Source: Amphibalanus amphitrite (lineage: Eukaryota > Arthropoda > Thecostraca > Balanomorpha > Balanidae). From it: DNA of 64,000 bases. The notes below the pieces were generated by a model. That model had not been told where the DNA came from and searched no databases. It saw only the letters and a program-made list of their open reading frames with translations. The translations under genes and the position numbers were made by a program. The stretch covers positions 98,501-162,500 of the forward strand of contig NW_024882957.1 of the NCBI RefSeq assembly GCF_019059575.1, read 5' to 3'. Positions 7,677 to 63,695 of the stretch are shown one piece after another. The stretch's first letter is position 1. Each line of letters begins with the position of its first letter.

Positions 7677-8696
7677 CCCTCGCCGGACCGGACCTATAGG
7701 TTTTCTACATACGCGCCGGCCGAGGGGGCGGGGGGCGGGTACGACCCCCCTCGCCGTTGCGCCCCAGGTTGAGCTAGCGCGTCGTGGAAAAACGAGCGTG
7801 TGCGCCGTTACAAGACGCAGAGATTGATACCCGATTTTAAGGTTCTAGGTCAACCGGTGACCTCTGAGGTCAGGTCAAGTGCCTCAAGGCACGGTTCCGT
7901 TTTTGGTGAATAACTTCGCAAAAAACGGCCGCAGGGCCGCGATTTTGCCAGCATCGTGTTTGCCTCTCTCAGGCGCGTCGAATGATGTACTTTTTGTTTG
8001 GGTGAGGTAAACTGAGGGTGTTGACCACGGGTCACGGCCAGGTCAGCGCCCCCAGGTCACGAAATTGGTCGAAGGAGGTCATGTCGCATATCATTCGATT
8101 CGGCAGGTCTTCTTGAGTCCATTGATGGCTTCCCCGACTCGCTAGCTCAATTTGATCGGTAGTTATTGACGACAAACTTATATGACCCTTATAACTTCAT
8201 AAATGACGTCGCGCAAGGTCAACATTGCAAAAGTGACGCATCGAACCTTGCAAGGAGTGCATGAAAGATTCAGTGTGCTTGAGATAGTTGAAGATCGTTT
8301 ACGGCGCCAGAAAAAGTTTTCAGTTTATCCCCATTGACTTATACCTAATGGTGAGGTCACGAAAATGACCTTAGGAAAAATCCGAGATGTACAAGTTATG
8401 AGACTCTTAATGGATACTAGGTCCTCCAAGGTTTATTTCCCTGTGAAATCTCCTCTGGCAGTGAGGGCGTTGCGAAGTTGCGACATCTGAAGACCGTGGA
8501 GAGGCTCACTTATGACCTCATGGGTCAGTGACCTGATCTGACCCGAAAATGCGGTTGGTGTCATAAGATCCGGCTTGATTCAAAGGTCAAGTATGCAAAG
8601 CTTCAGCTCTGTATCACCGGCGTGTTCGGAGCTATCGCGAAAAAAAAAACTATGGAGGGGCGGCACCCGCCCCCCCCCCCTATCGGCCGGTGAGGG
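7677..8696. mobile_element. piggyBac-like TTAA element (subfamily A)
   Basis: Starts CCCTCGCCGG after TTAA (7673-7676) and ends CCGGTGAGGG before TTGA (8697-8700). TTAA followed by CCC is the piggyBac end signature. Both ends have G/C hairpins (left near 7728-7752; right GGGGCGG-CAC-CCGCCCC near 8657-8673). The interior has many AGGTCA/TGACCT half-sites and no coding frame. It shares sequence along its length with the copy starting at 54425. It lies inside the 8701-9530 minisatellite, which resumes on both sides. Confidence 0.75.
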
Positions 8697-8700
8697 TTGA

Positions 8701-9530
8701 GGCCCTCAGAGACCAGTACAGGGCCTGCAAAGGGCAGGATGAGACATTTAGATGCCGACTTGGGCCATCAGAGGCTAATGCGGGTCCTTACAGGCCAGCA
8801 TGGGCCCTTAGAGGTCAGTGTGAGGCCGTAACAGACCGGCATGGGCGGGACCTGGAACCTAGAGACCAGCGGAAGGCCCTCATAGGCCAATGTGGGCCCT
8901 CAGAGGCCGATGCGGACCCTTAGAGACCGGCATAGGATCTTCAGAATCCAGTGCGGGGCCCTTAGAGGTCAATGTGGGACCCTAAAATACCAGCATGGGC
9001 CGGTGTTGGACCCCAGAGACCAGCAGAAGACCCTCAAAAACAAAGATGGGCCTAAGAGGCCGGCATCAGGTCTTCAGAATCCCGTACAATGCCCTCATAG
9101 ACTAATGACGGGTCCTTACAGGCCAGCATGGGCCCTTAGAGGTCAGTGTGGGGCCCTAAAAGACCGGCATGGGCCGGCGTTGGACCTCTAAGGCCAAGAT
9201 GGACCCTCAGAGGCCGATGCGGACCTTAGAGGCCGGCATCGGGTCTTCAGAAATCAGAATTCAGTGCAGGACCCTCAGAGGCACCTAAAGGTTAGTCTTG
9301 GGACCCCAGAGACAGAAATGAGGCCACCAGAGGCCGGTGTGAGGCCCTCAGACGCCGACTGGGCCCTTGAGGCCGGTTTAGGGGCCCTCAAATGAGGTCA
9401 ATGTGGGTTCTCAGCGGTCAATGTCGGCGCTTGACCGCCACTGAAGTGCCCTCCAAGATCAGTGTAGGACCCTCAAAGACTGGCTTGGGAGCTGTTAATA
9501 GCTAGCGTGGGATTCTTGAGCCTCGTGACA
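8701..9530. repeat. degenerate GGCCCTCAGAGGCC minisatellite
   Basis: Dozens of loosely repeated units of about 28-35 bases built on GGCCCTYAGAGGCCRGTGTG. The same array is seen to the left of the TTAA element (7610-7672). Similar arrays occur at 59810-60780 and, more weakly, near 18780-18990. The frames across it are repeat artefacts. Confidence 0.75.
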
Positions 9531-10184
9531 ATCGAATAAGGGCCAGAGCCCCATACGCCCATGGGGGCCCATTGGTTGTTTGGGGGGGGGGGGCAAATGA
9601 TATGATGGCCCCCTGATTAGCCTTTGGAGGGGGGAAGGGCATGGCCCTGATCCCCCCTCTGCGACCGCCACTGCACTGAAAGTGGAAGGGAAGGGGCAGA
9701 TACAGACATTGCTGGCCCCCAGCCTGTTTGAGCCGAGGCGGGGGCATGGTCACCCTGGCCCCCAGCTAGTACGCCTTTGACGAACTATGCCGACCCCAAG
9801 CAGATCCGGTCAAGCGTTGGTCGTTTGTATACGCATTCTCCTGCACCGTGCTAGTATTGTCTTATACCTTTTCAGTGCTCGCTGTCCCGTGCCTCGTATT
9901 CAACAAAATGCTGTCACCAGGACCCACAGTCTTGTCTCTGATATGGTTTCCTCCATTGAGTGAAGGAAATTGCGGTCAATAACGCTGTAGAAACAAAAGG
10001 GAATCTTCATTAAAGGGCAAGCTGAATTGTTGTCAAGTTACCGGGTGGTAGCACTGGTACCTAGGTACAGACAGACACTTAAGTCAGCAAAAAGTGGGGG
10101 GGCCAGTTAACATTGCTGGCCCCCCCACCTCCGAAAGTGGGGGGGCCATGGCCCCCCCGGCCCCCCCTGTTCCTACGCCTATGG

Positions 10185-11790
10185 CTGTATCAGCTTACCC
10201 CCAGTTAGCACCGTGGCCGAGCGCACGAGACCATCTTCGCTCCTTCGCACCACCTTCACCAGACCAAACGGCAATTGCCCCCGGGGAACGGAGGCATCAA
10301 CGACAACGACAATATCGCCTACTGCTACATTTGATCGAAGGCGCTGATCTGCAGTTCTTTCTTGTAACAAAGGGATGTATTCTTTTCGCCATCGTATCCA
10401 AAACTGGTCTGCCATATATTGCGCTTGTCGCCACAATTTTTTTTCCCAACTGCGTCATTTTTATCAAATAGGCCAGCTGGAATCGAAGAAGATCTCAGCA
10501 GTAAGATATCGTTGGGCGTCAGGGGATCGGGGTCTTTTGGATCCGCAGACACCGCTGTTAAGGGGCGACTGTTGAGTATGTACTCCACTTCACATAAAAA
10601 CGTTTGCAAGCTTTCGTCAGTCAACTTTTGCAGATGCAGTATAAAATCAAGAATTTTTTTTCACGCTTCTAATCATGCGCTCCCAAGCGCCACCAAAAGT
10701 TGATGCTTGCGGGGGGTTGAAAATCCACTTAACCTGCTTTTCTAACATTGCCGAATGGATTGCGTCACTGTCAGCCAAAAGGTCCAACTCTCTACTTAGC
10801 TCTCGCTTGGCACCTACGAGGTTCGTACCACGATCAGATCTGATGGTTCTTATTTGTCCTCTCCTCGCAAGGAACCTGCGAAATGCACAAATGAAGGAGT
10901 CGGTTGAAAGGCTGCTGGCAACTTCAATGTGTACAGCACGAGTGCTCAAACAAGAAAAGATGATACCGTATTTTTTCACTTGACTTCGCCCCCGGGCTAC
11001 GAAAAACGGACCGAAGAGGTCAGTTCCAGTACTTGAAAATGGCGGCTCCAGAGCACAAATGCGGTCAGGAGGTAAGTCGGCCATCTTTTGTGTTTCCGGC
11101 TTGCGCTTCATTCTTCTACACCGGACACAGTTTCCGAGGACCCGTCTTACCGCGCTATTTCCTTTTAGAATCCAATACGTCCTTCGTATTTCTGAGAGGA
11201 CATGCTCTCTACCTCCATGCCCTACATCTTCATGTACCTTTTGTATCAACATGTCGACGACCCTCCCTTTTGCCGGAAGAATAACAGGGTGTTTAGTGGT
11301 GTGCTGGGAAGAGGAGTGCCGCAACCTGCCTCCTACGTGGAGGAGGCCGTCGTGGATATAGGGGTCCAGTCGGTAAATGCTGCTTGTTCTACGCAAAAAT
11401 TCGGAGCTTAAATCAGTCAGTTCTTGCTGGAACGTTGTATGCTGCTCGTGTTTGAGAATGACATGCTCAGCTTCTAAAATGTCCTCTGGCGCAAGGCGAC
11501 GATTATCACTGGTTTTCTTCCTAAGGTAAGAGCGTATGCGGAGTAACCAGGCGACCGCTCGTGTCAGACGTTTCCACGACGAAAAATAATTTATGCATCT
11601 ACGTATAGGATGGACGTTGTCTGCAGCATTATTTTGTAACATGCACGCGGCCGTCGTGACCTTTTTCACCTCTGGGTCGTCATCTGGTAGATAACTATCA
11701 ACGCAGTTCTGTTTTGGTAGATCTCTCGTCTCCCAGAGGAATTGCGGGCCATGCTGCCACTGCATATTCTTAATAAAAATTGACGGGATA
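10185..11790 (-). pseudogene. BEL/Pao pol 3' region (fossil)
   Basis: Part of the BEL/Pao fossil. The order is: tail of the RNase H domain, an H2C2 zinc-binding module with a CxxC pair (NCVRCRRMKRK), the integrase core (motifs THIS-like RAVHIEV and FNPPQASTFGGAWERMI), then the DUF5641-type tail typical of BEL/Pao (ILNSRPLT, PLTPNDILLL, VGDIVVVVD). Broken; it lacks the front of pol and is split from its last residues by the hAT at 7201-10183. Confidence 0.85.
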
Positions 11791-12176
11791 ACGTTTGAGA
11801 AGCTGAGCTTTGGAAATTCCGAACGAAAAACGAAGAAAACGAACGGAAACGATCGAGCTTCCCATCGAATTGAAATACCGAATTCGTACGAAGGATCGAA
11901 CATAAACTGAATATGTCATTGAACGGTTTTCAAAACGTTTTCAACTCTGGAAATATCACCGAGAAATGGTCACGTGAATGAGAGTTCAGATAATTCAAAA
12001 TTTGTTTCATGTTTTTATTTGCTTTTACTTGTTCGATAGATATGGTCGTTTTTTGAATTGATTTGACTTTTGTTACCCGTCTAGGCGACTTCTGTTACTA
12101 TTAAAACCAGTATCCAAATATATTGCGTTTTCATTTCAGATGTTCTTTTTGTTATTGTTGGCCTACGGCGGTAACA

Positions 12177-12853: not shown

Positions 12854-13014
12854 GGCTGACCATGTACTTTGGCTACGGCGTGCACCACGCGGTGGCCGGC
12901 CGGCGGGCGGCGGCTGAGACCACGGCCCTGGACCAGCTGCCACCCTACTCAGACACATCGTCAGATCAGTCGGGAGGCTCCGAGCGGCATCGACTCATCG
13001 ACGCAGACCGGTAG
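12854..13014 (+). CDS. last exon of a cationic amino-acid transporter (SLC7 CAT type), partial
   Basis: After a good acceptor (TCCCACAG) the frame reads LTMYFGYGVHHAVAGRR and ends at TAG 13012-13014 after 52 codons. A short hydrophobic piece ending YFGYGxxHS-like is the hallmark of the last membrane helix and start of the C-terminal tail in CAT transporters (SLC7A1-4, fly slimfast). The tail is acidic and Ser-rich (YSDTSSDQSGGSERHRLID). CAT proteins import arginine and lysine across the plasma membrane. The exon starts with two bases of a split codon. No earlier CAT exon is visible between 2000 and 12850, so the rest of the gene would lie upstream of the window, with the first gene (1-1498) in its intron; otherwise this is a stray exon copy. 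Confidence 0.55.
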
Positions 13015-18800: not shown

Positions 18801-21800
18801 TGGTTTCTGAAGGCTGCAATCTACAGGTCTTTGAGGGCTCCACGGTGGCGTTTTGGGGCCCATCGCAGATTTAAGTTCCGACGGTAGTCAATGAGGACTT
18901 TATGCAGGTTTCCGAGAACTCCATGCCTATTTCTGAGGGCCCCACGTCGGCCTGTGACGGGCTATAAAAGGTGAATGTCTTATGCCGGCATATGAATGCT
19001 CTTAACCCGCGCACCGACGGGGGTCTGCGCCAACTTAGTACCGACGGGGGGGGGCGGATGACCGCCCCCCCCTGAGATCTCGAGAACGAAGCAAGATAGC
19101 GACAAGCGGTAAACGGCATCGGATACGCACGGTCAAGATCTACAATTTTTACTAAGGTCATTTTCAGGTCAGGTCAAAGATGACGTCACAGGGGTCGAAA
19201 AAGTCAAAATGGCGGCGCTAGATATGGAGAGAGTTTTTCTCGAATAACTTTCGAATTAGTCAAGATATGAACAAACTAAGGGCATCATCGTGATCCTCTC
19301 GTCAATCCGCATCGAATGATATATATGTTGACCTCGAAAGGTCAAGGTCAAAGGTTGACCTCAGGTCACGTGACCTCGAGGTCATCATGTATATCATTCG
19401 ATGCGTCTTGACGAGCTGAACACAATGAGACCATCCACGCGTCTGTATCTTGTTCCTGTACGGAGTTATTGGCCAAAAACCTTTGGTGACCTTTGATGAC
19501 GTCACATGACCTCACAGCTGCCCAACAGCAAAACAGACCTCAAGGTAGTGAAGGTTGATCGTATATGAAGTCATGTATGGTATATGGGGCCATTCCGACC
19601 CGTTTTAGTGGTAAAAACAGGGAGTTGATTTTTCCCCCATTGACTTATAATGGGGAGGTCGCGAAATTGACCTGACCTTAGGTCACCGATATCAAAATTC
19701 CGAGATATACAAATTGTAGCTACTAATGACCTAATAACATCCTGCGACTTTCAAAGGCCTCCGACATCTACTGTAGCTCTGGCACGGTGACAAAGTTGCA
19801 AAAAAGTGACTTGAGGTTGGGTCATTCAAAGTGACCTGGTGACCTGACCTTGAAAGGTAGGAGGTTCAAACTTGCACACCATGTGTAAAATTGATAAGGG
19901 AATAGTCATACCAAATTTCGCGGCGCTACGCGCCGCGGTTTTCCCGCTATTCGCGAAAAACCTCAGGGGGGGGCGGATATCCGCCCCCCCCCCGTCGGTG
20001 CGCGGGTTAAGATCTCAGGGCGGTTCCAAAGCATCGGGCGGTACCTACCTACGTAGAAAACCGTTACGGCGAGGGTTCAGACAATGTGCCAGGAACCTTG
20101 CTCTTTCGGCGGATTGCAATATCCTTATCGGCCGCCCTTACCGCCCTAACATTTGTTGTAATCACCAATAGGCAATACTGCTTACGAAGTGCCACGGGAC
20201 GCTTTGTTCAGGGCCCTTTTGACTGTGAAAGGATGTATGATGGGCTATGAGAATCATTATTCGTGATCTATGAGGAATTTGTCGTCGAATTATGTGCATT
20301 GCATTCCAATTTTGAAAGAAAAAGTATTCGAAATCCGAGGTCTCGTGAGATTAGACCGGCCGGTCTGCCTACGGAGCGGCCGCCGGATCCTACCTATAGT
20401 AGTTCAGGAAACGGCCACCAGATGTCAGCCACTTCTGAGTCACGAGGCGAATAGACGACACCAAGCGGTGACAGATGCGAGCCAGCATGATAACGTTAAC
20501 AGCCTACCGAGATCAGTAATGAATATATGAACTGCATTTGTTCTTTAAGGCATTTCAGGTCAATATTGGTAAATATTGTCAGCGTTTCCAATTCACTACA
20601 GTATCTGAAACCTACACAGTAGTTACATCTGCTGCACATAACAATACAATCTCGCACCTTCCCAGACCATTCGCGTCACTCGTTCCATTATCCCAGCGCC
20701 ATCCCTGCACCCTCACTGACCTGATGACCGTGCGACTCGTCTGGCGGCGACTGTCCGCCGTCAGTGTGCCGTCTGCCGCCGGTCGGAAGGTCACACCCCC
20801 GATATCCAGTCGCGGGGGCGCCGGCGTACCGCGGTCCACGCGGCGGAGGCTGCGGCCGCCGGCCTCGACACGGAACCGGGCGCCGCGGACACTGATCCAA
20901 CCCGGGGAGCGGGCGGACGATCCTGCCGTGGGGGGGGGTCAAACTTCAATGATCCGCTGATACAGCCCGGAGAACACACGAACGACCCCGTCGGGGAAGA
21001 GGGAGTCGGGAGGTTCAATGATTCACTGATTCATCCCTGAGGACGGCGGCATAACAAGCTTTTGTCTCACTCTCAGCATGATATGCATATCAAAATTAAA
21101 ACATCTATGTTTTAATTTTGATATGCATATCATGCTGAGAGTACCTCAGCTATAGCTGAGGTACATACTAAACAAGAAACCCGGATTATGGCTCAACAAT
21201 GCTAATGCAACGAATTGGAAAACGATTCAATTGCTTCCGTTCTCAATAATCCCCCTCCAAACGTGGATACTGGATACCGAACTTCAGAATACTACCAAAT
21301 GCCCATTTATAAAAGCACCCGCAAAAAGCATACCTGTGGCAGCAGCCCCGTTCTTCTGCGTCGACTTCGGCACGGCACGCTGCAGTTTTCTCGCCGTAGT
21401 TTTGTAGAGAAGGCCTCCGATGTTAACGAACCGTGTGGAGCCCAGACGGAGACTGCCGGCACTCCTGCAGAGTAGGGTCGGCACATTCAGTACTCGTTAG
21501 GATAACCGGGACAAACGTGACATGTGCTGAGTACTTGTTCGGCCACGTTACAGTTGACCTATGTGAATGTCACCATTTACCTAATACCTACTTAAATACC
21601 TAGCGCGTTATATGCTTCAAACGGCAAGACGACACGACACCGTATTCAAAGGAAAAATTTTCAGTCTGGTAAGCTTCAACCATTCTGGATTTCCAACATG
21701 TATTTCCAGACCGTGCACGACTATATACGCGCCTCTTGAAAACATACATATGCCTGTATGTGCCTGTCCCCCAGCCGGCCTGTCCTCGCTACCTATACTC

Positions 21801-24059: not shown

Positions 24060-24620
24060 TCGTATGGCATTTCTTCGTCGCGCAATTCTTCGTCCGCATT
24101 TCTTCGTCCGCAAATCTTCGTCGGCGCATTTATTCGTGTCGCATTACTTCGTCTCGCATTTCTTCGTAGGTGCAAAAATTCGTAGCGCATTTCTTCGTAT
24201 CCGCATTTCTTCGTCGGCGCATTTCTTCGTCAAGCATTTTTTCGTCCACGCATTTCTTCGTCTACGCAAATCTTCGTCCGCATTTCTTCGTCCACGCAAA
24301 TCTTCGTCTCCGCAAATCTTCGTCCGCAAATCTTCGTCCCCGCAAATCTTCGTCCGCAAATCTTCGTCCGCATTTTTTCGTCCACGCATTTCTTCGTCTA
24401 CGCAAATCTTCGTCCGCATTTCTTCGTCCACGCAAATCTTCGTCCCCGCAAATCTTCGTCCGCAAATCTTCGTCCGCAAATCTTCGTCCGCAAATCTTCG
24501 TCCGCAAATTTTCGTCCGCATTTTTCGTCCACGCATTTCTTCGTCCAATCAAATCTTCGTCCGCAAATCTTCGTCCGCAAATCTTTGTCTGCGCTATCTT
24601 CGTCTCCGCAAACACTCGTC
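24060..24620. repeat. 14-bp minisatellite, left arm of palindrome
   Basis: About 35-40 units of CTTCGTCCGCAAAT and variants (CATTTCTTCGTC, ACGCAAATCTTCG). Because 14 is not a multiple of three and the unit has no stop codon, all three frames stay open on each strand; these frames are artefacts. Confidence 0.9.
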
Positions 24621-25197
24621 CACAAATGTGGTTCAATAAAACCATGAAAAATATCAGACAGTCAAGTGAATGACGAATTTGATGCATGGAATGGATGATC
24701 GAAACTTTTGAAGTCAGGTAGATGAGGTCAGTCAGGTGAAGCTATTGTATTTGGAGCCGACAATTGTAACATTCCATATCATTTGTCAATTTGTGTCCCG
24801 GACATTCTTTTTTTCGCGGTCGTTGAATGACAATATATATAATCTCTTGTACCTTTTCGCCGGCATGGCGGCGGAACGGGGAGGGCACCGGGGCACCGTT
24901 CCCCTCTTTAATTTTGGCCTTTTAACAGTAGCCCTATGGGCGTTGCATGGAAAGCATATTGGACCAAAAGTCGGCAGTGCCGTGCCCCCCTTAATTGAAG
25001 ATGTTCCGCCGCTACTGCCCGCCGGACCTATTTGTTTTCTACGGTACACGCCGGCCGAGGGGGCGGGTACGACCCCCCCCCCCCCCCCCATCGCCGTTTC
25101 GCCACTGGTGGAGCTATAGCGCGTCGCGGAAAAAAAACGAGCGTGTGCGCCGTTACGAGCCGCAGAGATTAATACCCGATTTTAAGGCCTTCTGGGT

Positions 25198-25713
25198 CAG
25201 GGGTCGGCATACGGCTCGCGGGCCGGATCCGGCCAGGTGGGTGACGGTTGGATCCGGCCCGCGACCATCTGACGTCCGGCCCGCGGCTGGTATCAGCGAC
25301 TTACATCGTGTTCCGGCCCGCGGTTCCTTCATAAATCGACTCCGATATAAAAGTGACTCAAATGTGCTTTGGCACAACAGTTCTTCCTTCGCACACTTCA
25401 TGAGTTTATAAACACCATTTGCGGGTGTTTTTGTCTAATTCTACTTCTAGACAAAACTTGCAACGGTAAGATTTGGTCAGCAGCTTTTGCGCGCAGCATC
25501 AACGACTGCTGCAGCTGCGTGCACTTGGCGGCTTCACGTGGTCTGCTCGCTTAACCTTCCAGGCGGTGTGTGTGTGTGGGGGGGGGGGGCCGGGCCGGAA
25601 CACGATGTAAGTCGCTGATACCAGCCGCGGGCCGGACGTCAGATGGTCGCGGGCCGGATCCAACCGTCACCCACCTGGCCGGATCCGGCCCGCGGGCCGT
25701 ATGCCGACCCCTG
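25198..25713. mobile_element. hAT non-autonomous element at the palindrome centre
   Basis: Begins CAGGGGTCGGCATACGGC and ends with its reverse complement; these are classical hAT termini. The inverted repeats run about 125-130 bp. The flanks are not a direct 8-bp duplication. Instead TTCTGGGT on the left faces ACCTAGAA on the right, the inverted counterpart, because the flanking arms are themselves inverted. No transposase inside. Confidence 0.75.
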
Positions 25714-26269
25714 ACCTAGAAGGCCTTAAAATCGGGTATTAATCTCTGCGGCTCGTAACGGCGCACACGCTCGTTTTTTCCGCGACGCGCTAGCTCCACC
25801 AGTGGCGAAACGGCGATGGGGGGGGGGTCGTACCCGCCCCCTCGGCCGGCGTGTACCGTAGAAAACAAATAGGTCCGGCGGGCAGTACTAGCGGCGGAAC
25901 ATCTTCAATTAAGGGGGGCACGGCACTGCCGACTTTTGGTCCAATATGCTTTCCATGCAACGCCCATAGGGCTACTGTTAAAAGGCCAAAATTAAAGAGG
26001 GGAACAGTGCCCCGGTGCCCTCCCCGTTCCGCCGCTATGCCGGCGAAAAGGTACAAGAGATTATATATATTGTCATTCAACGACCGCGAAAAAAAGAATG
26101 TCCGGGACACAAATTGACAAATGATATGGAATGTTACAATTGTCGGCTCCAAATACAATAGCTTCACCTGACTGACCTCATCTAGCTGACTTCAAAAGTT
26201 TCGATCATCCATTCCATGCATCAAATTCGTCATTCACTTGACTGTCTGATATTTTTCATGGTTTTATTG

Positions 26270-26850
26270 AACCACATTTGTGGACGAGTGTTTGCGGAGA
26301 CGAAGATAGCGCAGACAAAGATTTGCGGACGAAGATTTGCGGACGAAGATTTGATTGGACGAAGAAATGCGTGGACGAAAAATGCGGACGAAAATTTGCG
26401 GACGAAGATTTGCGGACGAAGATTTGCGGACGAAGATTTGCGGACGAAGATTTGCGGGGACGAAGATTTGCGTGGACGAAGAAATGCGGACGAAGATTTG
26501 CGTAGACGAAGAAATGCGTGGACGAAAAAATGCGGACGAAGATTTGCGGACGAAGATTTGCGGGGACGAAGATTTGCGGACGAAGATTTGCGGAGACGAA
26601 GATTTGCGTGGGCGAAGAAATGCGGACGAAGATTTGCGTAGACGAAGAAATGCGTGGACGAAAAAATGCTTGACGAAGAAATGCGCCGACGAAGAAATGC
26701 GGATACGAAGAAATGCGCTACGAATTTTTGCACCTACGAAGAAATGCGAGACGAAGTAATGCGACACGAATAAATGCGCCGACGAAGATTTGCGGACGAA
26801 GAAATGCGGACGAAATATTGCGCGACGAAGAAATGCCATACGAAGATTTG
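26270..26850. repeat. 14-bp minisatellite, right arm (inverted copy)
   Basis: Reverse-complement copy of the 24060-24620 array; units read ATTTGCGGACGAAG. Confidence 0.9.
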
Positions 26851-30795: not shown

Positions 30796-31518
30796 TGTGC
30801 ACAAATTTAGCACAAACCACTGGCCTCTCACTGCAAGCGGAAACACCCAGAGAACTGGTTTTAATCAAGGTTACCGAAGTAGATGAGATTGATGACTTTC
30901 TGCAGCTGATTTAAAGCCTATGACGTAATAAACTGCAAAGTTCGTTCCCAGATTTTTCATGTATTACTTGAAAAGTAATTGTTGAAAATTGATAAATGAA
31001 AAATTTAAAAATTTTTCTAAATTACAAAACCCTTGCAATTCAAATTCTATCCATAGCCATCAAATTGAGCTATCAGGATTTGAGCGATTCTCGAATCAAA
31101 ATCATGGATTGAGATACGTCATCAAACTTTATTGCCTTCATCATTAGTAGTGATGCTTCGACCAATTTTGCACGCAAAAATCAACAAAACTCGCTTAGGA
31201 TACAAATTAGGTACAAAATAAAGGTAGTGACTTGTGAGATGCGAATATTTTATTCATTGCATTCATTGCATGATTGTTTGTTGGTTATTCTTTTGTAATG
31301 ATTGATAAGTTTCAAAACAATTACTGAAACAGATCAAAACGTTTGAAAGTTAGGTATAGTGGAAGAATTTTGTTTTCTCTCTGTCTCAGGTGTTTGGGTC
31401 AAAATTCGAAATTTGACTGCATTTATTTGGTTATTTTTCTATCTGAGCAGCCATTGTTTTTATTGGTGTTTGCCACACATTTGGGCTGTGGGCTCCTCGT
31501 CGATGTGCTTCAAGCCCA
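30796..31518. other. APP 5' flank
   Basis: AT-rich, no frame or repeat recognised. Should hold the APP promoter and 5' UTR. Confidence 0.35.
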
Positions 31519-41312: not shown

Positions 41313-41316
41313 TTGA

Positions 41317-42510
41317 CCCGCGCCCCACTGGGGGGAGGGGGCTATTCATAGCCCCCTCCCGTTTTTCTGCGATAACTTCTAAACCGCTTGTCGCATCGAC
41401 GCCAAACTTTCAGTACCTTCGGCGACATCAATTTGACATCTTGTGTCAAAATATGAACTTAGTAGCTGCCATAGGTCAGCCGGAAATGACGCCAGGGTGA
41501 CGTCATGTTCGGCCGATTTCGACGCTAAACATTGAACCACGGCAATCGCTCCCAAGAGCTCAGGTTTTAAGCTAGATCCAATTTCTTTGCATGATAGGAC
41601 TCATAATAGACTGCGCTGTCAAACTGTTATCTCGGATTTTCAAAATTTTGAAAATTTTGAAAAGTATATATATTAAAATTCAAAATTTATATTTTATCTT
41701 TTTTCAAAACGTTTTTGACTTTTCGAGAAAAAAGCGGAATATATGTGATAGGACACATGCTTATAATTTACTCCATCCAGTTTTAACCGGACATCTTCAA
41801 AAATGGCTAAGTTATACGCATCATAGGAAAAAAAATTCACGACTATAAATTTTTCCAATCATTTTTTCAGTACGTATTTGACATTATAAACCAATATAAA
41901 TGGCACTATCGTGTTCCTGAGCTCAAACTGCATCCGATACACTTTTTTTGTTAAAAAAAAAAAATCAACTTAAATTTGACCTTTTTAACCTGAAAGTGGC
42001 CTGACCTAAGCTAAATTTAACTCAAAATGACCTTGAATGACATAAACGACATCGAATTCGAAATATATGGTCTAAATGGAGCATAAAACATGTATCACGT
42101 GACCGATGCATGGCATGACATAAGATTTCCGTGAGGCGTGACCTGTGATGACCTGACCCTGACCTGAAAATCAAAGTACAATTTTGGTACCCTTAGGGTA
42201 TCTCAAGCATCTATTCACGAGTGTGTAAACAAAAAAAGAGGCCGATCTGACTTGTAAGACGGCGGCCAGAGCCCAAAATGTGAACAAGCCAATTATCGAT
42301 AATTGTTACGTGAACCTGACCTGTGACGTCATCGGTGACCTCGAGGTCAATGAAATTAATTTTCGCTCGCTCGACAGTTTTTCCGGGGATATCAGACGCC
42401 GTTTGAATTAGTGACGATCGGCCCAGTAGTTTCGGAGTTAAGAGGGGGATAGCCCCCCCCCCCCCCCCAGTAGCCGGGCGCGTTATGCTCAGACCCCAGT
42501 CGGGCGCGGG
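41317..42510. mobile_element. piggyBac-like TTAA element
   Basis: Starts CCCGCGCCCCACTGGGG after TTGA (41313-41316) and ends in CCCCAGTCGGGCGCGGG before TTAA (42511-42514). The left hairpin is long and perfect: GGGAGGGGGCTAT, two bases, ATAGCCCCCTCCC (41334-41361). The right one (GGGGG-ATAG-CCCCC near 42444) is shorter. The interior has TGACCT/AGGTCA half-sites near 41980-42350. Confidence 0.8.
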
Positions 42511-42619
42511 TTAAGTTTTGCGAATGGCTCATTGATTTCAAGTTGAAGGCTACGTTCACGGTGATATGCTCGTGAAACTAGCCTCGAGTGGGATTCCACT
42601 TCGATTTAGTTACGAGCTT

Positions 42620-45780: not shown

Positions 45781-46037
45781 GGCATATTCCTATACAAACA
45801 ATGTTATGTTTTGCTTTTTAGTGGCTTACATCGATTTTGTTCTAAAAATAACGCAAAAATAAGCATACAGTGATGTTACTTAAACTTTTACGCCTAGTTT
45901 CCTTTTTGATAATACTGCAATTTCATTCATGCAACATATTTCTTGGTCAGTATTGTGACAAAGTTTTGGAAATATAGTGCGGCAGAACACAAAACTTTCT
46001 TTTGATACAACCTCCAGCCTCAGCAGGTCACGGTCAA

Positions 46038-47200
46038 CCCTCGTCCCGTTGGGGGTTGGCAATATAGCCCCTGTGTATTTTCCTGAATAGCAGGAAAACG
46101 GCGGCGCGCAGCCCCGCCAAATTTTCAATAGCTTCCCGGGCATCAATTTGACACCTTCACACAAAACTTCAAGTCTTAGGTTACCTTAGGTCAGGAGTTA
46201 TTGAGGTCGAACTGAGGTCATGTTCGAGCAAAAATGAGCAAAAAACATTAAATATTGAAACGCTCACAAAAGCTACAGTTAACAAGCAATTTCGAATCTC
46301 TCTATCTGATCGTGTAGAAAAAAAGACGGTGCTACAAACTGCAATCTGTGATTTTCAAACTTTTGAGCTTTTGACCCCCCAAATTAAAAAAAAAAATTGG
46401 TATGAAATAACAAAAAAAGTTTTCGAGTTAAAACACGGAATATATATGATAGTCCCTGCTCTCTTCGAGCTACATAACAAATTGTAGATCGATACCTCTT
46501 TTTGGCCTGGTTATAGCGAAAAAGCTGTTCAAAATTGATTACGTCAATTTTTTAACTCAATTTTTAACAATTCTAGACCACGTAACGCAAAACAAAGACG
46601 ACCATTAGACTTCCCGTGACGAGCTGCATCGAATCGATACTCATTTCATGCAAAAATATCAAATTAGAAATTTGACCTTATTTGACCTGACCTTCACCTG
46701 ACCTTCACCAGAACATAACCTAAACTGGCCCCAAAGGTTGCCTGACCCACATAATCGCATTTGTTATGTAAAATGGACCAGAAAACATGCATCGCATAAT
46801 AGTTATCTTCATATTGTGACCTTCAGTGACCTGACCTTTGTGACCTGACTTGGTATCAGTGACCCCAAATAGCACAATATGTGTTTGACGAACAATGCCC
46901 CATCGAAAATTGTCATTCATCGATTCCTTATCGATGAATGGCATGCATTTTACTCGATTTTACAACACATTTCTTGAAATTGCCTGTAAACGGTGAAAAT
47001 TCGACATTTGACCTGACCTGTGACGTCATCGGTTTGACCGAGGTCAATGAAATTGAGCCAAAAGGTATTTCCTCGTTGGGGCCATCCAACACCGTTTGCT
47101 GCTTGTTGTTATTTTGCGTGGTTCTCGAGATCTTAGGGGGGGGGGCAAAATGCTCCCCCCCAATGGGACCGACGCTCGGGAGACCCTAAGGGGGCGCGGG
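46038..47200. mobile_element. piggyBac-like TTAA element
   Basis: Left end CCCTCGTCCCGTTGGGG after a degraded TTAA (46034-46037 reads TCAA); right end GGGGGCGCGGG before TTAA 47201-47204. Right hairpin GGGGGGGGCA-AAA-TGCTCCCCCC near 47136-47160. The interior is rich in TGACCT (46670-46860, 47010-47045). Confidence 0.75.
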
Positions 47201-47204
47201 TTAA

Positions 47205-50902: not shown

Positions 50903-50906
<4 letters not shown>

Positions 50907-54098: not shown

Positions 54099-54424
54099 TT
54101 TATGAAACTATTGGTAGGCACTAGGCACACACTACACAGTTGCTCAGACTAAGACTGAGTTTCATGATCTGTCGAGTGTCGATAGTCTATTAGAAGATTA
54201 TTCACTTATCATTAGCAACCGTTCACATGAGGCTGAGCCTAACGACTAATAAAGTCATTGGAAGTTCATCTCTATATTTTTTTCCTCAACAAAGTTAACA
54301 AAATACTGTACGTTTGCCGTTATCATCACATTGTGCTATCTTATTCTTTGGAATCAATTATTTAGCTGTTCTTTAGAGTTACCTATTTGCTGCTCTACGT
54401 GTTTTTCCTAAGCTTTTAAATTAG
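54099..54424. other. FkbM gene 5' flank
   Basis: AT-rich, nothing recognised; should contain the promoter. Confidence 0.35.
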
Positions 54425-55103
54425 CCCTCGCCGGACCTTTTGGCTATCTACATACGCGCCGGCCGAGTGGGGGGGGGGGCTGGTACGACCCCTCTCGCCG
54501 TTTCGCCCCTGATGGAGATAGAGCGTCACGGAAAAACACGAGCGTGTGCGCCGTTATGACTTATGAGACGCAGCGACTGGTACCCGATTTTAAGGTCTCA
54601 GGTCAACTGGTGACCTTTGAGGTCAGGTTAAGTGACCCAAGGCACGGGTTCAGTATTTAAGAAAATAACTTAACCCCCCCCCCAAAAAAAGAACGGTCGC
54701 AGAGCAGCGATTTTGGCATTATCGTGTTCGCCTCGCTCAGGTGCGTCGAATAGGTAGTATAATTTTTGTTTGAATGAGGTCAAATTCAGATGTTGACCGG
54801 AGGTCATGTCGCATATCATTCGATTCGATAGGTCTTCCCGAGTCTATTGGTGGCTTTCCGAGTCCCTAGCTCAATTTGATCGGGAAGTATTGATGAAAAA
54901 CTCATGACCCAAGTGACGTCATTAATGACGTCACGCAAGGTCAACAAGCAAAAGTTAAGCATCGTTGTGCAAGAAATCACGATTCAGTGTGCTTGATATA
55001 GTTTGAGATCGTTCCCGGCGCTAAAATAACAGTTTTCATTTTTCTCGTTGACTTATAGGTAGTAGTGGAGTCACGTGACCGACCTAACCCCATGTGACCT
55101 TAA

Positions 55104-56429
55104 CCCTCGCCCGTATAGGGGGGGGGGGGTCGAACGGACCCCCCATGGTTTTTCGCGAATAACTCGCGTAAAAAGCGGCCGATCGCGACGAAACTTTCAG
55201 TACCCTCGCGTTAATCAATTTTACACCTACCCTAAAAATTTCATGACCCTGACCCCAATGACCTTTGACCTGTGACCTACTTTTCGAGACCATGTTTGGC
55301 CGGAATCGCGATTCGGCGTATGTCGGCTCGTATTAGCCGCGCGTTTGCAGTCTTTTCGTGGTTTCAAGCGTTCAAACATGTGATATGATGTTTCCCCCAT
55401 GCATTAGGGTGGGTGTCAAGGTCACCTAAAGGTCAGGTCAGGTCATTGACCTTTGGTGACCTCGGTTCACTTTTTCGAGTTTTACATGTTTCTAGGCCAG
55501 TTTTTGGAGCTGAATTCGAATTTAGCAACCATATGAACATTTACGAAGTAGTTTTGGTGCCTTCGTAATATGTTACGAAGCTGTCAGAGGCGGTTGACAC
55601 CTACTTAGGAATACCCGGCAGGACCCCTACTGGTTGACCTGACCTGACCTGACCCGACCTGGACTAAATGCATGAAGACATCATCTGTGATCAAAACTAA
55701 CATGATATTCGTGATCAGCGCCCCGAAAAACCCTATAGCAGCCACACTTTACGACGTTTTAACAGGTCCCGATTTTCCGACTTTTGGGTCATTGACCTGA
55801 CCTGCAAGGTCAACCAATGACCTAGGACCTTAAAATTAGGTATTAGAGTTGCAATGTTTCCCCCAAAGGCTGCTACCGGCACCGCCCCGCCCCACAAAAA
55901 TTTTCTGGGATACCGGCATGCTACCACGCCCCAAGCAAAAACACCACCAAATTACCGGCATACTAAAAACCTGCATTGTTGATTCTAGCTTACCCCTACA
56001 AGAGATGCCACATTTTGGCAATTTCAGTAGGTACCCATCCCACCCAGCAGCCACTCTATCACAAAATGTATTTTGCAATGGCTAAGATTGTTGTTCTTAC
56101 AATTTGATAACCTCTTAGTGTCCAAAGTTTGAATCATATGCTAATAATTTTTTTTGTGCAAAACCAAAAATACCGGCATGCTACCGGCAAGACATGCCAG
56201 ATACCACGAAAAAACCTGCGGTAGTGAAAAATTACCGGCATGCCGGTAGTGCGGTAGGGAAACTTTGCAACTCTATTAGGTATCATCGGCTTCCTCTCGT
56301 CACGGGCAACACGCTCGTTTTTTTCCGCGAAGCTCTAGCTCGATCAGGGGCGAAACGGCATGGGGGGGGTCCAACGGACCCCCCCCCCTTATACGTTCGC
56401 GGCTGGAAAAACACCAATACGGGCGAGGG
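55104..56429. mobile_element. TTAA element B, nested in A
   Basis: Ends CCCTCGCCCGTATAGGGG / GGGCGAGGG with exact TTAA on each side (55100-55103, 56430-56433). Left hairpin GGGGTC-loop-GACCCC (55125-55143); right hairpin GGGGGTCC-AAC-GGACCCCC (56362-56390). Rich in AGGTCA half-sites (55430-55470, 55635-55665, 55795-55830). It holds a hAT at 55844-56275. Confidence 0.85.
55844..56275. mobile_element. 432-bp hAT element nested in B
   Basis: Ends TAGAGTTGCAA / TTGCAACTCTA with an exact 8-bp duplication TTAGGTAT at 55836-55843 and 56276-56283. Many TACCGGCATGC-type subterminal repeats. No coding capacity. Confidence 0.88.
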
Positions 56430-57174
56430 TTAAGGAAAAAATCTGAGATACAAAAGTTGTGAGAACTCTGGAAGATACTACATCTTGTAAGTTTCATCTC
56501 CTTGTATAATTTCTCCTGGCACTGAGGGCGTTGCGAAGTTGCGACATCTGAGGACCGTGCAGAGGTTCACTTATGACGTCATAGGTTAGTGATCTGACCT
56601 GAAAATGAGGCTGGTGTCACAAGGTGTAGCTTGGATCAAAGGTCAGGCATGCAAAGTTTCAGCTTTCTGTCGCCGGCGTGTTTGGAGCTATCGCAAAAAA
56701 AAACATGGGGGCCCGCCCACCCCTCTGCCAGCGAGGCTTAACCCGCGCCCTGCTGGTGACCGAGTGACGGATCACTTTGATACTTTCAGCAACTGATAAA
56801 GGCAACAGCACGTACAAAATCTATATCACATAATTTTGATATCGACGGCCTAAGGTCAGATCAATTTTGTGACCTCCCATTTTTTAAGTCAATGGGAGAA
56901 AAATGAAACGCAAGTTTTTGTACGAACGTCATTCTAGCTGTCTCAAACACCGATTTTTAAGTAATGGCACACTGAACTGGAAAATGGCACTCGTGACCCC
57001 TCCTTGTGTCCTTGAGATCATCTCAGGTCAAGAAAGCTATGCAACAGTTGTTCGCTAATACCTTTTTATGAAGACATACTAGAGCGAGGAAAACACCTTA
57101 GATGTGTTCAGCTCGACGATACGGATCGACTGCTAGGTGTAACACAGCCTTTTCTGGCCAGGTCATGACCTTAA

Positions 57175-59258
57175 CCCGCGCGGCACTGGGGTCTCCAGCC
57201 GAACGCGCGGCGCTGAGGGGAGGGGTAAATATTAACAACCCACTGCTAACTCAAAAACTAAGGGCCGTAGAAATACATCGTAGGCGGCAATCGAAAGCTC
57301 GTAACGAGGAGGTTCATGTGCTTGAAATGTTCTTAACCCGCGCCGGGCCGGGGGGGGGGGGGTGTTTGAACACACACACCCCCTGCGGTTTTTCACACAT
57401 ATCTAGAGCGCCGCCGTTTTTGGCACACCTGTTTGTGCATCTTTTCCGCACATGTGAAAAGTTCAGACCCAGGTTGCTCAAGGTCAGGTCACCATGTCAC
57501 ACCAAGTGACCTCACCTCAGAAAAATTAGAATGCTCGTCATAGTTACCCCGACTGAACGATTGCCTTGAAACTTTCAGCGATTGCTGAAAGTAACAGTAT
57601 CTATAAAACGTATAACTCGAAATTCTTATATCGATGACCTCAGGTCAGATCAATTTTTCGGCCTCTCCAGTATAGGAGTCAATGGGAGAAAATTGAAAAG
57701 CGTCTATTGTGCACGAACGCCATTCAAGACACTCTGAAGCATCGGGATACAGGCAAAATTGACACACTGAACCGGAAAATGGCACCTCTGACCCCTCGTT
57801 ATGTCCCCGAGGTCATCTCGGGTCACGAATAGTATCTAACAGTTATTCGCTAATAACTTCTGATAGAGGCATGCTAGAGCGATGAAAACGCCTTAGATGT
57901 GCTCGGCTCGACGATTTCGATCTCGACTGATTTGCAACATGACCTTTTCCGGTCAGGTCATGACCTTGACCTGGGGTCAAATTTTCAAGTTGACCTTTCA
58001 AGGTCAAAATATAGTTCATATGAAGCGTCTCGACGAGAGGAACACGATGCTGGCAAAAGTAATGTAGTGGCTCTTTTGAATCAAAAGTTATTGCCGAAAA
58101 AAACACTTCGTAAAAACGGTTATTTTTTGGAGTTTTTGCCCTCTGGAGGCTAAACCGTTTACCTGAAGTCAACTCTGAGGAAATGTTAGCGAAAGAGCGT
58201 TAAAAGAGCAATCCAATGCGCTTTTCCGCGGTGCTATACCTAGCTCTTCGGTTCCCGAGTTATGCCGTTGGCAGTTTCCAAATTGTTGAAATAGCCAACA
58301 TTTTACTTTTACCTTCGGTGACCTCTGTTGACCTGACATTTGACCTGACCCCAAAAAAATGAAATGACTTAAGTGTTTTCGACCTTATTTTGGACGTTCT
58401 TTCGATTGCCGCTTACCGCGTGTCGCTACGTGGCCCAGGAACCGAGGGCCGGGGGTGTTCAGACACCCCCGTGCCCGGCGCGGGTTAAAAAGGTCAAATG
58501 TGAGGTTAACGTCATGTTAAAGGTCAGGACATGATTATTTGCTCTGTCAGCAGAGGTGAAACATTCGAAATAGTGATTTTTGCCATAAAAAGTTTCTTTC
58601 TCTTTCGATGCATACATTTACGGGGAGCTCAGTGGTGCTATTTTCATTTTTTCTGTGATGCAAACTTTGGTCAAAAAACGAAATGGAAAAATTACCTATG
58701 GACCATGGACATCTACGAAGATTTTGGACGATATCAAAGCCATTTTTGAACCGATTGACTTGAAATTTGGCATATTTAAGTGAATTTGATTCATAGGCAT
58801 GCATAAACACAAATCAAAATGTTTTTGAAAAAATATGTTTTTTTTTTTAATCTTAGTTGCTTTCAATACCTAACACGAGATTTTTTTGAAAATGTGAGGG
58901 TAAAAAAATTCATATTTTGGGAATCTAGGGTGGTTATTTTCTACAACTCAACATTGTGCGCCCTGTAATATTTAAAAATTTGGAATTGCTTATTAGATGA
59001 AAGGAGAAGTTGCTGTTTGAATAGGTATTTCCCTTATTTTGGCCGGAAATCTCCTGTAGTGACGCTATTGAACTGTCATTTTTTTTTCAAACCTTTCCGA
59101 CGAATTTTGTCAAAAAATTACAAAAGCAGACCTGTCAAATTGATGCAAAAGAGGGTACTGGAAGTTTACTGTTGATAGCTTACGTGGTTTATAAGTTATT
59201 GAAAAATCCTGGAGGGGGGAATGGATAGTATATTATTAACCCCTCAGCGCCGCGCGGG
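57175..59258. mobile_element. TTAA element E, nested in C and split by D
   Basis: Left end CCCGCGCGGCACTGGGG after TTAA 57171-57174; right end CAGCGCCGCGCGGG before CTAA 59259-59262. Confidence 0.7.
57337..58484. mobile_element. TTAA element D, intact ends, nested in E
   Basis: Ends CCCGCGCCGGGCC / GGCGCGGG with exact TTAA at 57333-57336 and 58485-58488. The right hairpin is perfect: GGGGGTGT-TCAG-ACACCCCC (58451-58470). The left one is GGGGGTGT ... ACACCCCC (57354-57384). 1148 bp, non-coding. Confidence 0.88.
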
Positions 59259-59489
59259 CTAACGTGAGGTCAAATGAATTATATTTCATTAGATGCGTCA
59301 CGACGAGAAGGGCACGATGCTGGTAAAAGTAAGCATGTGCAAAATTTGAGTCAAAGGTCATTGTAGAAAAACTGTTGTAGGCTACAACAACTAAAGCTGT
59401 AGCTCAAGGCTATATAAACCAGGTAGAACGCTCCCGACGAAAAAGTGGTGACAAGCGATAATTAGTAGCCGCGACCCTCTTTTGTTCAA

Positions 59490-61100: not shown

Positions 61101-61613
61101 AGTTCGTCGACAATCCTCCACAAACGTCTGTCACCATTTTTCATAATGCTTAACAGCCGGAGCGTACCCCCCCTGCTGTAGCTCTATTCGTTCCTGAGAT
61201 ATGCGCCGGTTGGTCTTAAATTGTCGAAAATTGACCTGGAAATTGGTGCAAACTATCATAGAAAGACACTGTCGCTGACATGCACAGGAGTGACGGTCGC
61301 CGATTATCGATACTTACCCACGCTCACCGCCATGACTTCCTCGCCGATGGTTGTTATCCGATCACTAAGCTCTGCTAGCTCTGCTCTGCCCTCGGTGGCG
61401 TCCGAGTACCGTTAGGCGGCGGCCGCGACCCGCGGCCATAGGTAACGGCCGGAGCCAAGGCCATGCCGGAGCGACACCAGCGCAACCATCGGCGGCCGGT
61501 CGGAACTATCGCAACGTATCGTATGTTAATTAATTCAAATTATTTCGTAACGATATGTTATGTGTGAACGAAAACTACTAAAAAATTAAGAAAAATGCAT
61601 TTCATGTTATAGC

Positions 61614-61770
61614 TTAAAGGGACTATCCCACCTTTAACATGGGGTTTGAGTTGAGATAGCCAAGTTTGCGGCGAGGTTCAGAAACCACTATCTATCTAGG
61701 TTGCAACCCCCGCGGCCTCTTGGTGTTGAAGAAATTCGTTCCCTTCATTTGAAAATGGGCCTTGTACAAG
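61614..61770. mobile_element. left part of a TTAAAGGGAC-ended element
   Basis: TTAA then AGGGACTATCCCACC, followed by about 140 bp matching the 31523-31989 element in reverse orientation (GAGTTGAGATAGCCAAGTTT). Right end not found. Confidence 0.6.
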
Positions 61771-63399
61771 GCCCTATCTTCAACATGGAGCGACCGTTAG
61801 TGTGACGTCACCTCGTTTAGTCATTCTGATTTAAATGGGTTTGTTCGTTGAAAAATCGCTTAAAAGTTGGTCTGAACTTTGTTGTGGGGCCTACAGAGTA
61901 AAAAGAATCAGCTTTATGACAGTAATGTGGCCTGGGGAAGGAGGTAATTTTGGGATGTGACGTCACATATTTGAAAGTTTGTGTTTGGAATATGGGAAGC
62001 CTAAGATGTTTAATGAAAAATAAATGCCAGAACCGTGTTCCTGGTCATCCAATCTATGAAGTCGGGCACAATTTATAGGTAACTGGTTTTAACAACATTT
62101 TAGAAGGTGGTAATTTCATGGTACATCTCGAGCGATGTAAATGGGTATTTCAAGGGATAATTTGAAAAGTAAATAATTGCATCTCTTCAATTAACTTATA
62201 ATATCATTGTATATGTTACATATTCGCAAAATGCCCCACCGGAATACGAAAGCCCACAAAGTAAGCTTTCTAAAAATGTGTATTAGTCACAAGTCAGTGA
62301 TGGCTTGCTTTTGACGCGGTTGTTTTCGTTGGCGGTCGATACAATATACACTTGCTATAATTCAATGCGTACAACCAGGGACGTAGCAAAGGGGGGGGGG
62401 CGGAAGCCGGAAGGGGCGCCCGCCCCTCTCTTGGGGTTTTCAGGAGGCCCCAGGATGGAATCAGGCCAACGTGGGCCGACGTTGGCCAAAATCACGTCGG
62501 AGGCGAACGAAATTCACGGGAATCTCAAAATGACGTCAGAACAATCAGGGCCCTCTGACCAGCCTGACAGCTAGCTAGGGTCCTTCTCACCTCCTGTGAA
62601 TAACCACTATATGTGGTTGGGTGGAACAGACTAGTGAATAACCACTAGTCTGTTCCATATCGTTCCATATCAAGCTTGCAGTCGGAGTTTCTTCGGCAGA
62701 TCGCTCCTCCGCTCAAGAATTTGCGTCTTAAAATGTAAAAGCTGTATATACAGAAATCACGCACTGCTTTCAGCATGGCACTTCGGCTGCAAGCTTGAAA
62801 CGGAACAGAGTATAGTGTGTGTGTCTGACCGCTAGGGCCCCTCTGACTCCTCAGTAGAGAGGAGGTCCTCTGTGGGTAGGAGGCCCTCTGTAGAGAGGAG
62901 GCCCCCTTAGAGAGGAGGCCCTCTGTAGAGTGGAGGCCCTCTGATGAGTGGAGGCCCTTTGCAGAGATGAGGTCCTCTGTATAGAGGAATTTTTGTGTAT
63001 GTAGAGACGAGACTCTTTGAAGAGAGGAGGCCCTATATAGATAGGAAGTCCTCTGTAGAGAGGTGTAGAGACTAGAGAGGAGGCCCCCTCTGTAGAGAGT
63101 AGTCCCTCTGCAGATAAGAGGCTCTCTGTGGGCAGGAGTCAAAGACAGCGTCGTATATTAAGTAGAGTGGACTGTGGAGGCCCACTGTAAGCAAATTACC
63201 TCCTGGCTTCTGGTCCCTGCTACTCTCTAGTGAGAACTGAGAACTCAGGAAACTGTAAAGAATAGACTCCCAACCGCGTCGCCGCCCACTGTAGGAAGGG
63301 ACAGGGGCTCTGTAAACAGAAGGCCCTATGTAGACAAATAAGTTGTATAAATGCGCTCAGACAAATAATGTCGGGTGCCGTCAGCTTGACACCCATCCT
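61771..63399. other. no gene supported; repeats only
   Basis: Contains a perfect hairpin at 62623-62656 (GGAACAGACTAGTG, six bases, CACTAGTCTGTTCC) and a degenerate array of GTAGAGAGGAGGCCCTCT units at about 62850-63130. A possible hAT left end (CAGGGACGTAGC at 62380) has no visible partner. Confidence 0.5.
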
Positions 63400-63695
63400 A
63401 ACGCATGGGAGCAGCATCAAATCACATGTTTGAACGTTTGAAACCACGAAAAGCTTGCAAACGCGCGGCTAATGCGAGCCGACATACGCCGAATCGCGAT
63501 TCCGGCCAAACATGGTCTCGGAAAGTAGGTCACAGGTCAAAGGTCATTTTGGGTCAAGGTCATCCAATTTTCAGGGTAGGTCTGACAATGCGAGGGTACT
63601 GAAAGTTTCGTCGCGATCGGCCGCTTTTTACGCGAGTTATTTGCGAAAAACCTTAGGGGGGGAGGTACATCAACCTCCCCCTGTGCCGGCGAGGG
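63400..63695 (-). mobile_element. terminal fragment of a TTAA element, subfamily B
   Basis: Reverse-complement match to the left end of B (CGCGATTCGGCG, GGTCACAGGTCAAAGGTCAT). It ends CCGGCGAGGG before ATAA. Its hairpin GGGGGAGGT-ACATCA-ACCTCCCCC (63656-63680) differs in the inner stem from that of B but still pairs perfectly. Confidence 0.75.

What the first reader, a model, noticed from the sequence alone, without database searches (positions are those of the whole stretch)
7677..63695. Terminal G/C hairpins in the TTAA family covary between subfamilies
Copies of this family carry near each end a hairpin of a G-run and a C-run. The loop-side base pairs differ between copies but remain complementary: GGGGGTGT/ACACCCCC (58451), GGGGGTCC/GGACCCCC (56362), GGGGCGGAT/ATCCGCCCC (19976), GGGGGCTAT/ATAGCCCCC (41338), GGGGGAGGT/ACCTCCCCC (63656). 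Within the clearest elements (19006-20006 and 55104-56429) the left and right hairpins resemble each other. Compensatory change is hard to explain unless the fold itself is used, for example for transposase binding, hairpin-mediated end pairing, or an RNA structure. Some ends (right end of 54425-56737, left end of 46038-47200) pair poorly.
Basis: seen in the sequence. Interest (0 to 1): 0.8.

Follow-up and report, generated by a model that had tools for sequence, protein, structure and literature searches.

The report
Palindromic transposase sites in piggyBac-like MITEs
The paired G-run/C-run "hairpins" are real and do change in matched pairs between families, but they sit where piggyBac-type jumping DNA carries the palindromes its transposase grips as a pair, so a protein-binding site explains them better than a fold.

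Summary
With one representative per hand-tabulated subfamily (16), the three outer inner-stem pairs are Watson-Crick in 39 of 45 cells (short arm) and 36 of 45 (long arm), against about 16 when halves are swapped. Genome-wide, GGGGCCGnnnCGGCCCC has 3868 sites, GGGGCCAnnnTGGCCCC 2526, the mixed form 53.

The elements are non-coding TTAA MITEs, mostly 0.9-1.3 kb, tipped CCC(G/T)CGC; the two tips occur 34,222 and 35,530 times in an 808-Mb animal genome. Ends differ: the short arm is tip + box + palindrome; the long arm has box and palindrome again 26-28 bp further in (30 of 34 elements). Trichoplusia piggyBac is built this way, and a CRD dimer binds its palindrome as duplex DNA.

The likeliest cause is a dyad-symmetric transposase site, not a hairpin. 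One subfamily spread without the palindrome but with matching cores at both ends, and one palindrome has no loop. Within each of two interior groups, interiors are homologous while boxes and cores changed together at both ends; that is the most interesting part. No autonomous partner with these ends was found in the 30 of 116 transposase loci I could read.

The parts
19002..20010 (-). Complete element, box ACCGAC; long arm at the left, short arm at the right; TTAA on both sides
19047..19072 (.). Long-arm palindrome, core CGGATGACCG
19966..19991 (.). Short-arm palindrome, core CGGATATCCG (complementary right to the axis)
41313..42514 (+). Complete element, box CCACT; short arm at the left, decayed long-arm core at the right
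41333..41360 (.). Short-arm palindrome, core CTATTCATAG
46034..47204 (+). Complete element; short-arm palindrome decayed, long arm at the right
47139..47161 (.). Long-arm G/C run with core AGCATTTTG (poorly palindromic)
55100..56433 (+). Complete element, box CGTATA, inserted at TTAA inside the element 54421-56741
   Evidence: single site in the paralogue 7673-8700
55124..55144 (.). Short-arm palindrome, core TCGAACGGA
56362..56386 (.). Long-arm palindrome, core TCCGTTGGA
54421..56741 (-). Older composite element carrying 55100-56433; short-arm core poor
57333..58488 (+). Complete element, box CGGGCC, nested in 57171-59262; its right end has a long-arm flank but no 27-bp repeat
58450..58471 (.). 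Right-end palindrome, core TGTCTGAACA
57171..59262 (-). Older composite element with decayed palindromes
7673..8700 (-). Complete element, box GGCCGA; long arm left, short arm right
8657..8673 (.). Short-arm palindrome, core CGGGTGCCG
63658..63699 (-). Short arm, box GGCACA, palindrome 63658-63681; the other end was not identified in the window

Best explanation
The elements are non-autonomous piggyBac-type transposons (MITEs). [quoted passage not shown] The box beside the tip corresponds to the site of the transposase core (bp 7-16 in piggyBac). The long arm carries a second box and the palindrome about 27 bp further in, like the right end of piggyBac. Both halves of a palindrome, at both ends, must suit the same protein, so when specificity shifts between subfamilies all four half-sites tend to shift together; this looks like stem covariation. 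Shown here: the TTAA sites, the arm architecture and its offset, the covariation, the agreement between arms, and the homology of interiors within two groups. Inferred: the identity of the transposase, binding by a CRD dimer, and selection for binding as the cause.
For: TTAA, or TTAA with one mismatch, at both borders of eight window elements, and a single target site in a paralogue. The unique best offset of short-arm bp 7-15 in the long arm is 26-28 bp in 30 of 34 elements (27 in 20), against a mean of 5.8 and a maximum of 14 in 300 shuffles; piggyBac's own offset is 27-28 (PMC7351741). Palindromes are centred at median bp 29 in 37 short-distance ends and 57.5 in 33 long-distance ends; piggyBac's left-end one is centred near bp 25. 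The genome has 116 scored matches to the piggyBac DDE domain PF13843, and two of its coding piggyBacs carry unrelated near-perfect palindromes centred at bp 24.5 (L005 9/9, L031 8/9); in 12 such loci, these two included, 26 of 48,594 centres reach 8/9. Covariation within arms. Agreement between arms over the three outer letters: 5' halves 40 of 42 and 3' halves 38 of 42, against about 16-17. For 18 box types, the short-arm box matches the long-arm outer box at 89 of 108 letters and the inner box at 71 of 108, null 38, maxima 66 and 62. Precedent: the human MITE MER85 has a 16-bp palindrome 3 bp inside its TIR that PGBD3 needs for binding (PMC3459987, passages).
Against: No autonomous element with these ends was found; only 30 of 116 transposase loci could be read, with about 1.5 kb of flank, and in at least five of these the elements' own ends were not seen. 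Of 20 distinct other TTAACC(C/T) candidate ends at those loci, only 2 reach 8/9 at bp 24.5; others reach 7/9 at 23.5 or 25.5, and a few reach 8/9 elsewhere. The G-run varies from copy to copy, moving the short-distance palindrome centre from bp 21 to 33.5, whereas piggyBac's is fixed. The CATATGTTACCA subfamily spread without a palindrome, which also counts against an obligatory dyad site. Some long arms (CGGGTACGA, TTGGTACGA) show uncompensated halves, and only 12 of 30 elements have fully identical cores at both ends. The tip CCCG departs from the CC[C/T]T rule quoted for piggyBac (PMC2872659).
Confidence: 0.78

Rival explanations
1. The fold itself is used: one strand forms a hairpin (cruciform, single-stranded DNA during replication, or RNA) that the transposase or another factor recognises, or that pairs the two ends.
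For: Stems are stable: DNA fold z-scores -2.9 to -4.3 for three arms. Covariation between subfamilies is strong.
Against: Complementarity runs to or near the axis (no unpaired base in CGGATATCCG, two in TGTTTGAACA and CTATTCATAG), where a hairpin needs a loop. Left and right outer core letters agree about as strongly as the two halves of one stem do, which folding alone does not require. A subfamily without a palindrome expanded. Neither the C-G nor the A-T double was found among 10,313 sites of one subfamily.
Confidence: 0.07
2. Templated change: palindromes are copied onto themselves by strand switching, and arms onto each other by gene conversion, so complementarity and arm agreement are kept without selection.
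For: Arms agree even where the core is not palindromic. The changes TCG/CGA to TTG/CAA and CCG/CGG to CCA/TGG could each also be two CpG transitions. G-runs vary as if by slippage.
Against: Within the large TGTTTGAACA subfamily no C-G or A-T double was found. The long arms with uncompensated halves were not corrected. Boxes, which are not palindromic, changed together too, though gene conversion between arms could also do that.
Confidence: 0.12
3. A different TTAA transposase, such as Kolobok, moves them.
For: Kolobok also uses TTAA.
Against: Kolobok ends begin AG or AGGRR (PMC6004289, passages), these begin CCC; the words palindrome and hairpin do not occur in that paper's main text.
Confidence: 0.03

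Closest known systems
piggyBac of Trichoplusia ni (LE35/RE63 ends)
   Same: TTAA; box at bp 7-16; palindromic repeat next to it; the other end repeats box and palindrome 27-28 bp further in (PMC7351741 passages and section 9)
   Different: Here the palindrome is flanked by long G and C runs of variable length and its core differs among at least a dozen subfamilies; no transposase gene inside
MER85 / PGBD3 (human piggyBac MITE)
   Same: Non-autonomous piggyBac element whose 16-bp imperfect palindrome lies 3 bp inside the TIR and is needed for transposase binding (PMC3459987 passages)
   Different: MER85 has one palindrome, at one end, and 889 copies; here both ends have one and tips number tens of thousands
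piggyBat (Myotis)
   Same: Box plus imperfect palindrome repeated in the left end, bound by two CRDs (PMC11707139 passages)
   Different: Its right end lacks the palindrome; here both ends have it
CMITEs of Acropora corals
   Same: TTAA MITEs related to piggyBac in which the interior is more conserved between families than the ends (PMC2872659 passages)
   Different: About 100 bp long; the word palindrome does not occur in its main text; here about 1 kb with ordered end modules

Membership tests
piggyBac superfamily (non-autonomous) | TTAA target site duplication | tested here: met
   TTAA or one-mismatch TTAA at both borders of eight window elements; paralogue with a single site
piggyBac superfamily (non-autonomous) | Tip beginning CC[C/T]T (as quoted in PMC2872659) | tested here: inconclusive
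   CCCTCGCC fits (35,530 tips); CCCGCGCC has G at position 4 (34,222 tips)
piggyBac superfamily (non-autonomous) | Unequal ends with box and palindrome, repeated about 27 bp further in at one end (piggyBac itself; not universal in the superfamily) | tested here: met
   30 of 34 elements with offset 26-28
piggyBac superfamily (non-autonomous) | Mobilised by a DDD transposase of the PF13843 type | tested here: inconclusive
   116 scored matches in the genome; in the 30 loci read no such tip was recognised as the coding element's own end
piggyBac superfamily (non-autonomous) | CRD dimer binds the palindrome | not testable with these tools
   Needs a binding assay
Kolobok superfamily | RR (AG, AGGRR) terminal sequence | tested here: not met
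   Tips are CCC; the Kolobok rule is from PMC6004289
MITE | Short, non-coding, fairly uniform length, many copies, inverted ends | tested here: met
   18 compared elements are 0.94-1.33 kb and 9 of 10 CCCTCGCC pairs 0.88-1.05 kb, the tenth 1.97 kb; no ORF over 135 aa overlaps the window's elements; tens of thousands of tips

The most novel reading that the evidence does not exclude
One non-coding chassis has repeatedly changed its transposase lock: box (three copies) and palindrome core (four half-sites) are replaced together at both ends while the roughly 1-kb interior descends continuously. This would make the genome a natural record of perhaps a dozen shifts in the DNA specificity of piggyBac core and CRD domains, driven by competition between MITEs and diversifying transposases.
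Probability: 0.35. Interest if true: 0.65.

Novelty: new member of a known kind. Interest (0 to 1): 0.42.

Why it matters
It replaces a speculative fold with a concrete, testable protein-DNA code. If each subfamily's box and palindrome reflect a different transposase, the set gives ready-made pairs for working out how piggyBac core and CRD domains choose DNA. It also warns that covariation tests alone cannot tell an RNA or DNA stem from a palindromic binding site.

Tried and rejected
Fold or RNA structure as the driver: disfavoured for the reasons under rivals. Kolobok: rejected on the tip sequence. The coding piggyBacs of L005-L034 as direct partners: their recognised own ends are CCCATTAGTGCC(C/G), CCCATTARCGC, CCCTTTACCGGGC or CCCAGATCTGCCC; five of the 30 loci (L008, L016, L029, L030, L032) showed no clear pair of ends and no CCC(G/T)CGC tip within one mismatch in the flank held. 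L024 looked like a partner (CCCGCGC ends at 7 and 3825) but reads as a MITE with another piggyBac, with its own ends, inserted in it. A CpG-decay reading of the CCG/CGG versus CCA/TGG pair: mixed sites are 53 against 3868 and 2526 where independent halves would give about 3,084, so I take the two forms as subfamilies by descent; these are counts of copies, not of events, and the reversed-pattern control for the CCG form was not empty (483). R-scape was not available and a large alignment could not be fetched. The organism was not identified.

Rows dropped or chosen: 89 ends were listed and 70 parsed (recounted); the 19 unparsed are printed there. Ends were classed short or long by distance, so the right end of 57333-58488 counts as short. 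L045's partner end was left out by hand as another element's, and L060's nearer partner was chosen. W57333 was left out of the 34-element offset test. The four CATATG elements were added by rule to that test. One search used a tie-break towards 27 bp; one search repeats the test without it, with the same offsets. The subfamily table was compiled by hand (16 boxes, 15 short-arm and 15 long-arm cores; two boxes share one core; with distinct cores only, 36 of 42 and 33 of 42, null about 15); it leaves out the decayed 46034 and 57171 elements and single odd ends (L018, L036, 63699).
Full report
What is there. The window is 64 kb of an unnamed 808-Mb genome; a 646-aa amyloid-precursor-like ORF at 28906-30846 marks it as animal (the inference is mine). 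Eight TTAA-flanked elements with both ends lie in it, 0.9-1.3 kb when nested copies are set aside. A G6-N11-C6 pattern with one mismatch matches 44 times against 0.23 expected; several of these are overlapping registers of one site.

Scale. The exact 12-mer TTAACCCGCGCC occurs 34,222 times in the genome against 60 for the reversed control, and TTAACCCTCGCC 35,530 times against 57. Thirty loci taken by the first 12-mer alone (L040-L069, all from contig C1) give a sample not chosen for hairpins. Of these 30 tips, 19 fit a strict G4-core-C4 pattern and 11 do not. Of the 11, four (L062, L066-L068) carry the core CATATGTTACCA, or one base different, at both ends without a palindrome or long C-run; L043 and L044 have no run of four G or C; five are decayed or interrupted.

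Anatomy. Ends come in two kinds. In the short arm the tip is followed by a box and then the palindrome (37 parsed ends, median centre bp 29). In the long arm the palindrome is at median bp 57.5 (33 parsed ends). Matching short-arm bp 7-15 into the long arm of the same element gives a unique best offset in 34 of 34; it is 26-28 bp in 30 of them and 27 in 20; shuffling the arm gives a mean of 5.8 and at most 14 of 34. Trichoplusia piggyBac has this layout: a 35-bp left end, and a 63-bp right end with a 17-bp insertion and a duplication so that RE bp 34-63 nearly repeat LE bp 7-35. Its core domain touches bp 7-16 and a CRD dimer binds the palindrome at bp 17-33 (PMC7351741: passages and section 9). 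The spacers of 3 and 31 bp, and the MER85 palindrome needed for PGBD3 binding, are in passages of PMC3459987. Two coding piggyBacs of this genome carry unrelated palindromes at bp 24.5 (L005 9/9, L031 8/9); 26 of 48,594 centres in 12 such loci score 8/9 or better. The other 18 of 20 distinct candidate ends there do not score so at that place.

Covariation. With one representative per subfamily, the three outer core pairs are Watson-Crick in 39 of 45 (short arm) and 36 of 45 (long arm). Swapping 3' halves among subfamilies gives 16.3 and 16.6 on average and never more than 32 and 33 in 20,000 trials. Agreement between the two arms over the same outer letters is as strong: 40 of 42 for the 5' halves and 38 of 42 for the 3' halves (null about 16-17; same call). 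Over the whole core, 12 of 30 elements with both cores parsed are identical at both ends (same call). Genome-wide, GGGGCCGnnnCGGCCCC has 3868 sites (reversed control 483), GGGGCCAnnnTGGCCCC 2526 (control 7), and the mixed form 53 (control 11); independent halves would give about 3,084 mixed sites. These are copies related by descent, not events.

Within one subfamily the picture differs. GGGGHGTTTGAACDCCCC has 10,313 sites; of the listed places all but one hold the parental T-A pair and that one is C-A. The C-G double and the A-T double have no site. For this pair, then, change between subfamilies is compensated and change within one is not seen to be; single copies seem not to be under selection for the stem. 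Some changes between subfamilies are not compensated: long arms CGGGTACGA and TTGGTACGA beside short arms CGGGTGCCG and TTGATGCAA.

Fold or protein site? A used fold predicts complementarity within a stem, a loop of about three bases or more, and no need for left and right to agree. A dimer site predicts dyad symmetry up to or near the axis and the same half-site at all four places. The data fit the second better: CGGATATCCG has no loop, TGTTTGAACA and CTATTCATAG leave two bases, and arms agree in their outer letters. Stems are stable as single-stranded DNA, as any such palindrome would be. Templated repair and gene conversion remain possible for part of the pattern.

Descent. Among 15 CCCGCGC elements, 43 of 105 pairs have interiors over 60% identical across about 0.8-1.05 kb; all 43 lie within one of two groups on the interior tree, none between them. 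Between the groups BLAST finds only short homologous pieces, for example 19% of L049 against L052. Within a group, boxes and cores differ: L069 (core CCG/CGG) and L065 (CCA/TGG) are 79% identical inside; L055, L004 and L042 (79-89% identical) have the same or nearly the same core but three boxes. Box changes appear together in the short arm, the outer long-arm box and, less closely, the inner one (89 and 71 of 108 letters against 38). The CCCTCGCC elements of the window share little interior with the CCCGCGC ones (at most 15% of an element). A conserved interior with variable ends has been described for the coral CMITEs (PMC2872659, passages).

Transposition. The element 55100-56433 sits inside 54421-56741; the paralogue 7673-8700 has one TTA(A)-like site at that place, as expected of a TTAA duplication.

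Verdict. Observation confirmed; the hairpin is best read as the palindromic internal repeat of piggyBac-type ends. Membership rests on architecture and TTAA; the autonomous partner was not found in the 30 of 116 transposase loci that could be read. Papers were seen as passages (PMC7351741, with one section; PMC11707139, PMC3459987, PMC13405395, PMC6004289, PMC2872659); others only as listings. Literature searches were made; I make no claim that such elements are absent from print.

Noticed in passing
window, whole; elements listed: AGGTCA/TGACCT, the nuclear-receptor half-site (name recalled), occurs 174 times in the window against about 31 by uniform base composition, and 280 times in 20.7 kb of 18 elements. 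Tens of thousands of copies would scatter a great many such sites.
   Followed up: partly
window 57333-58488 right end; L001 at 1484: Ends with a long-arm flank but the palindrome at the short distance, as if the 27-bp unit had been lost between the two boxes.
   Followed up: partly
window 24080-26823: Two inverted arrays of a 14-16-bp CGCAAATCTTCGTC-like repeat with long-arm-like G/C palindromes between them near 25057 and 25842.
   Followed up: no
window 28906-30846: Amyloid-precursor-like protein (N-terminal, copper-binding, E2 and C-terminal domains) in one uninterrupted 646-aa frame, so a gene without introns here or a retrocopy.
   Followed up: no
L062, L066, L067, L068 (C1:0.87-1.07 Mb): A young subfamily (L062 and L067 about 95% identical) whose core CATATGTTACCA is not palindromic but is the same, or one base different, at both ends.
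   Followed up: partly
L018 at 507: Another tip, CCCGGCACC, with a fully self-complementary core GGTCGGATCCGACC in G/C runs, a further end type.
   Followed up: no
window 10647-11903: 418-aa frame with an integrase zinc-binding domain (PF17921), probably a retroelement fragment.
   Followed up: no
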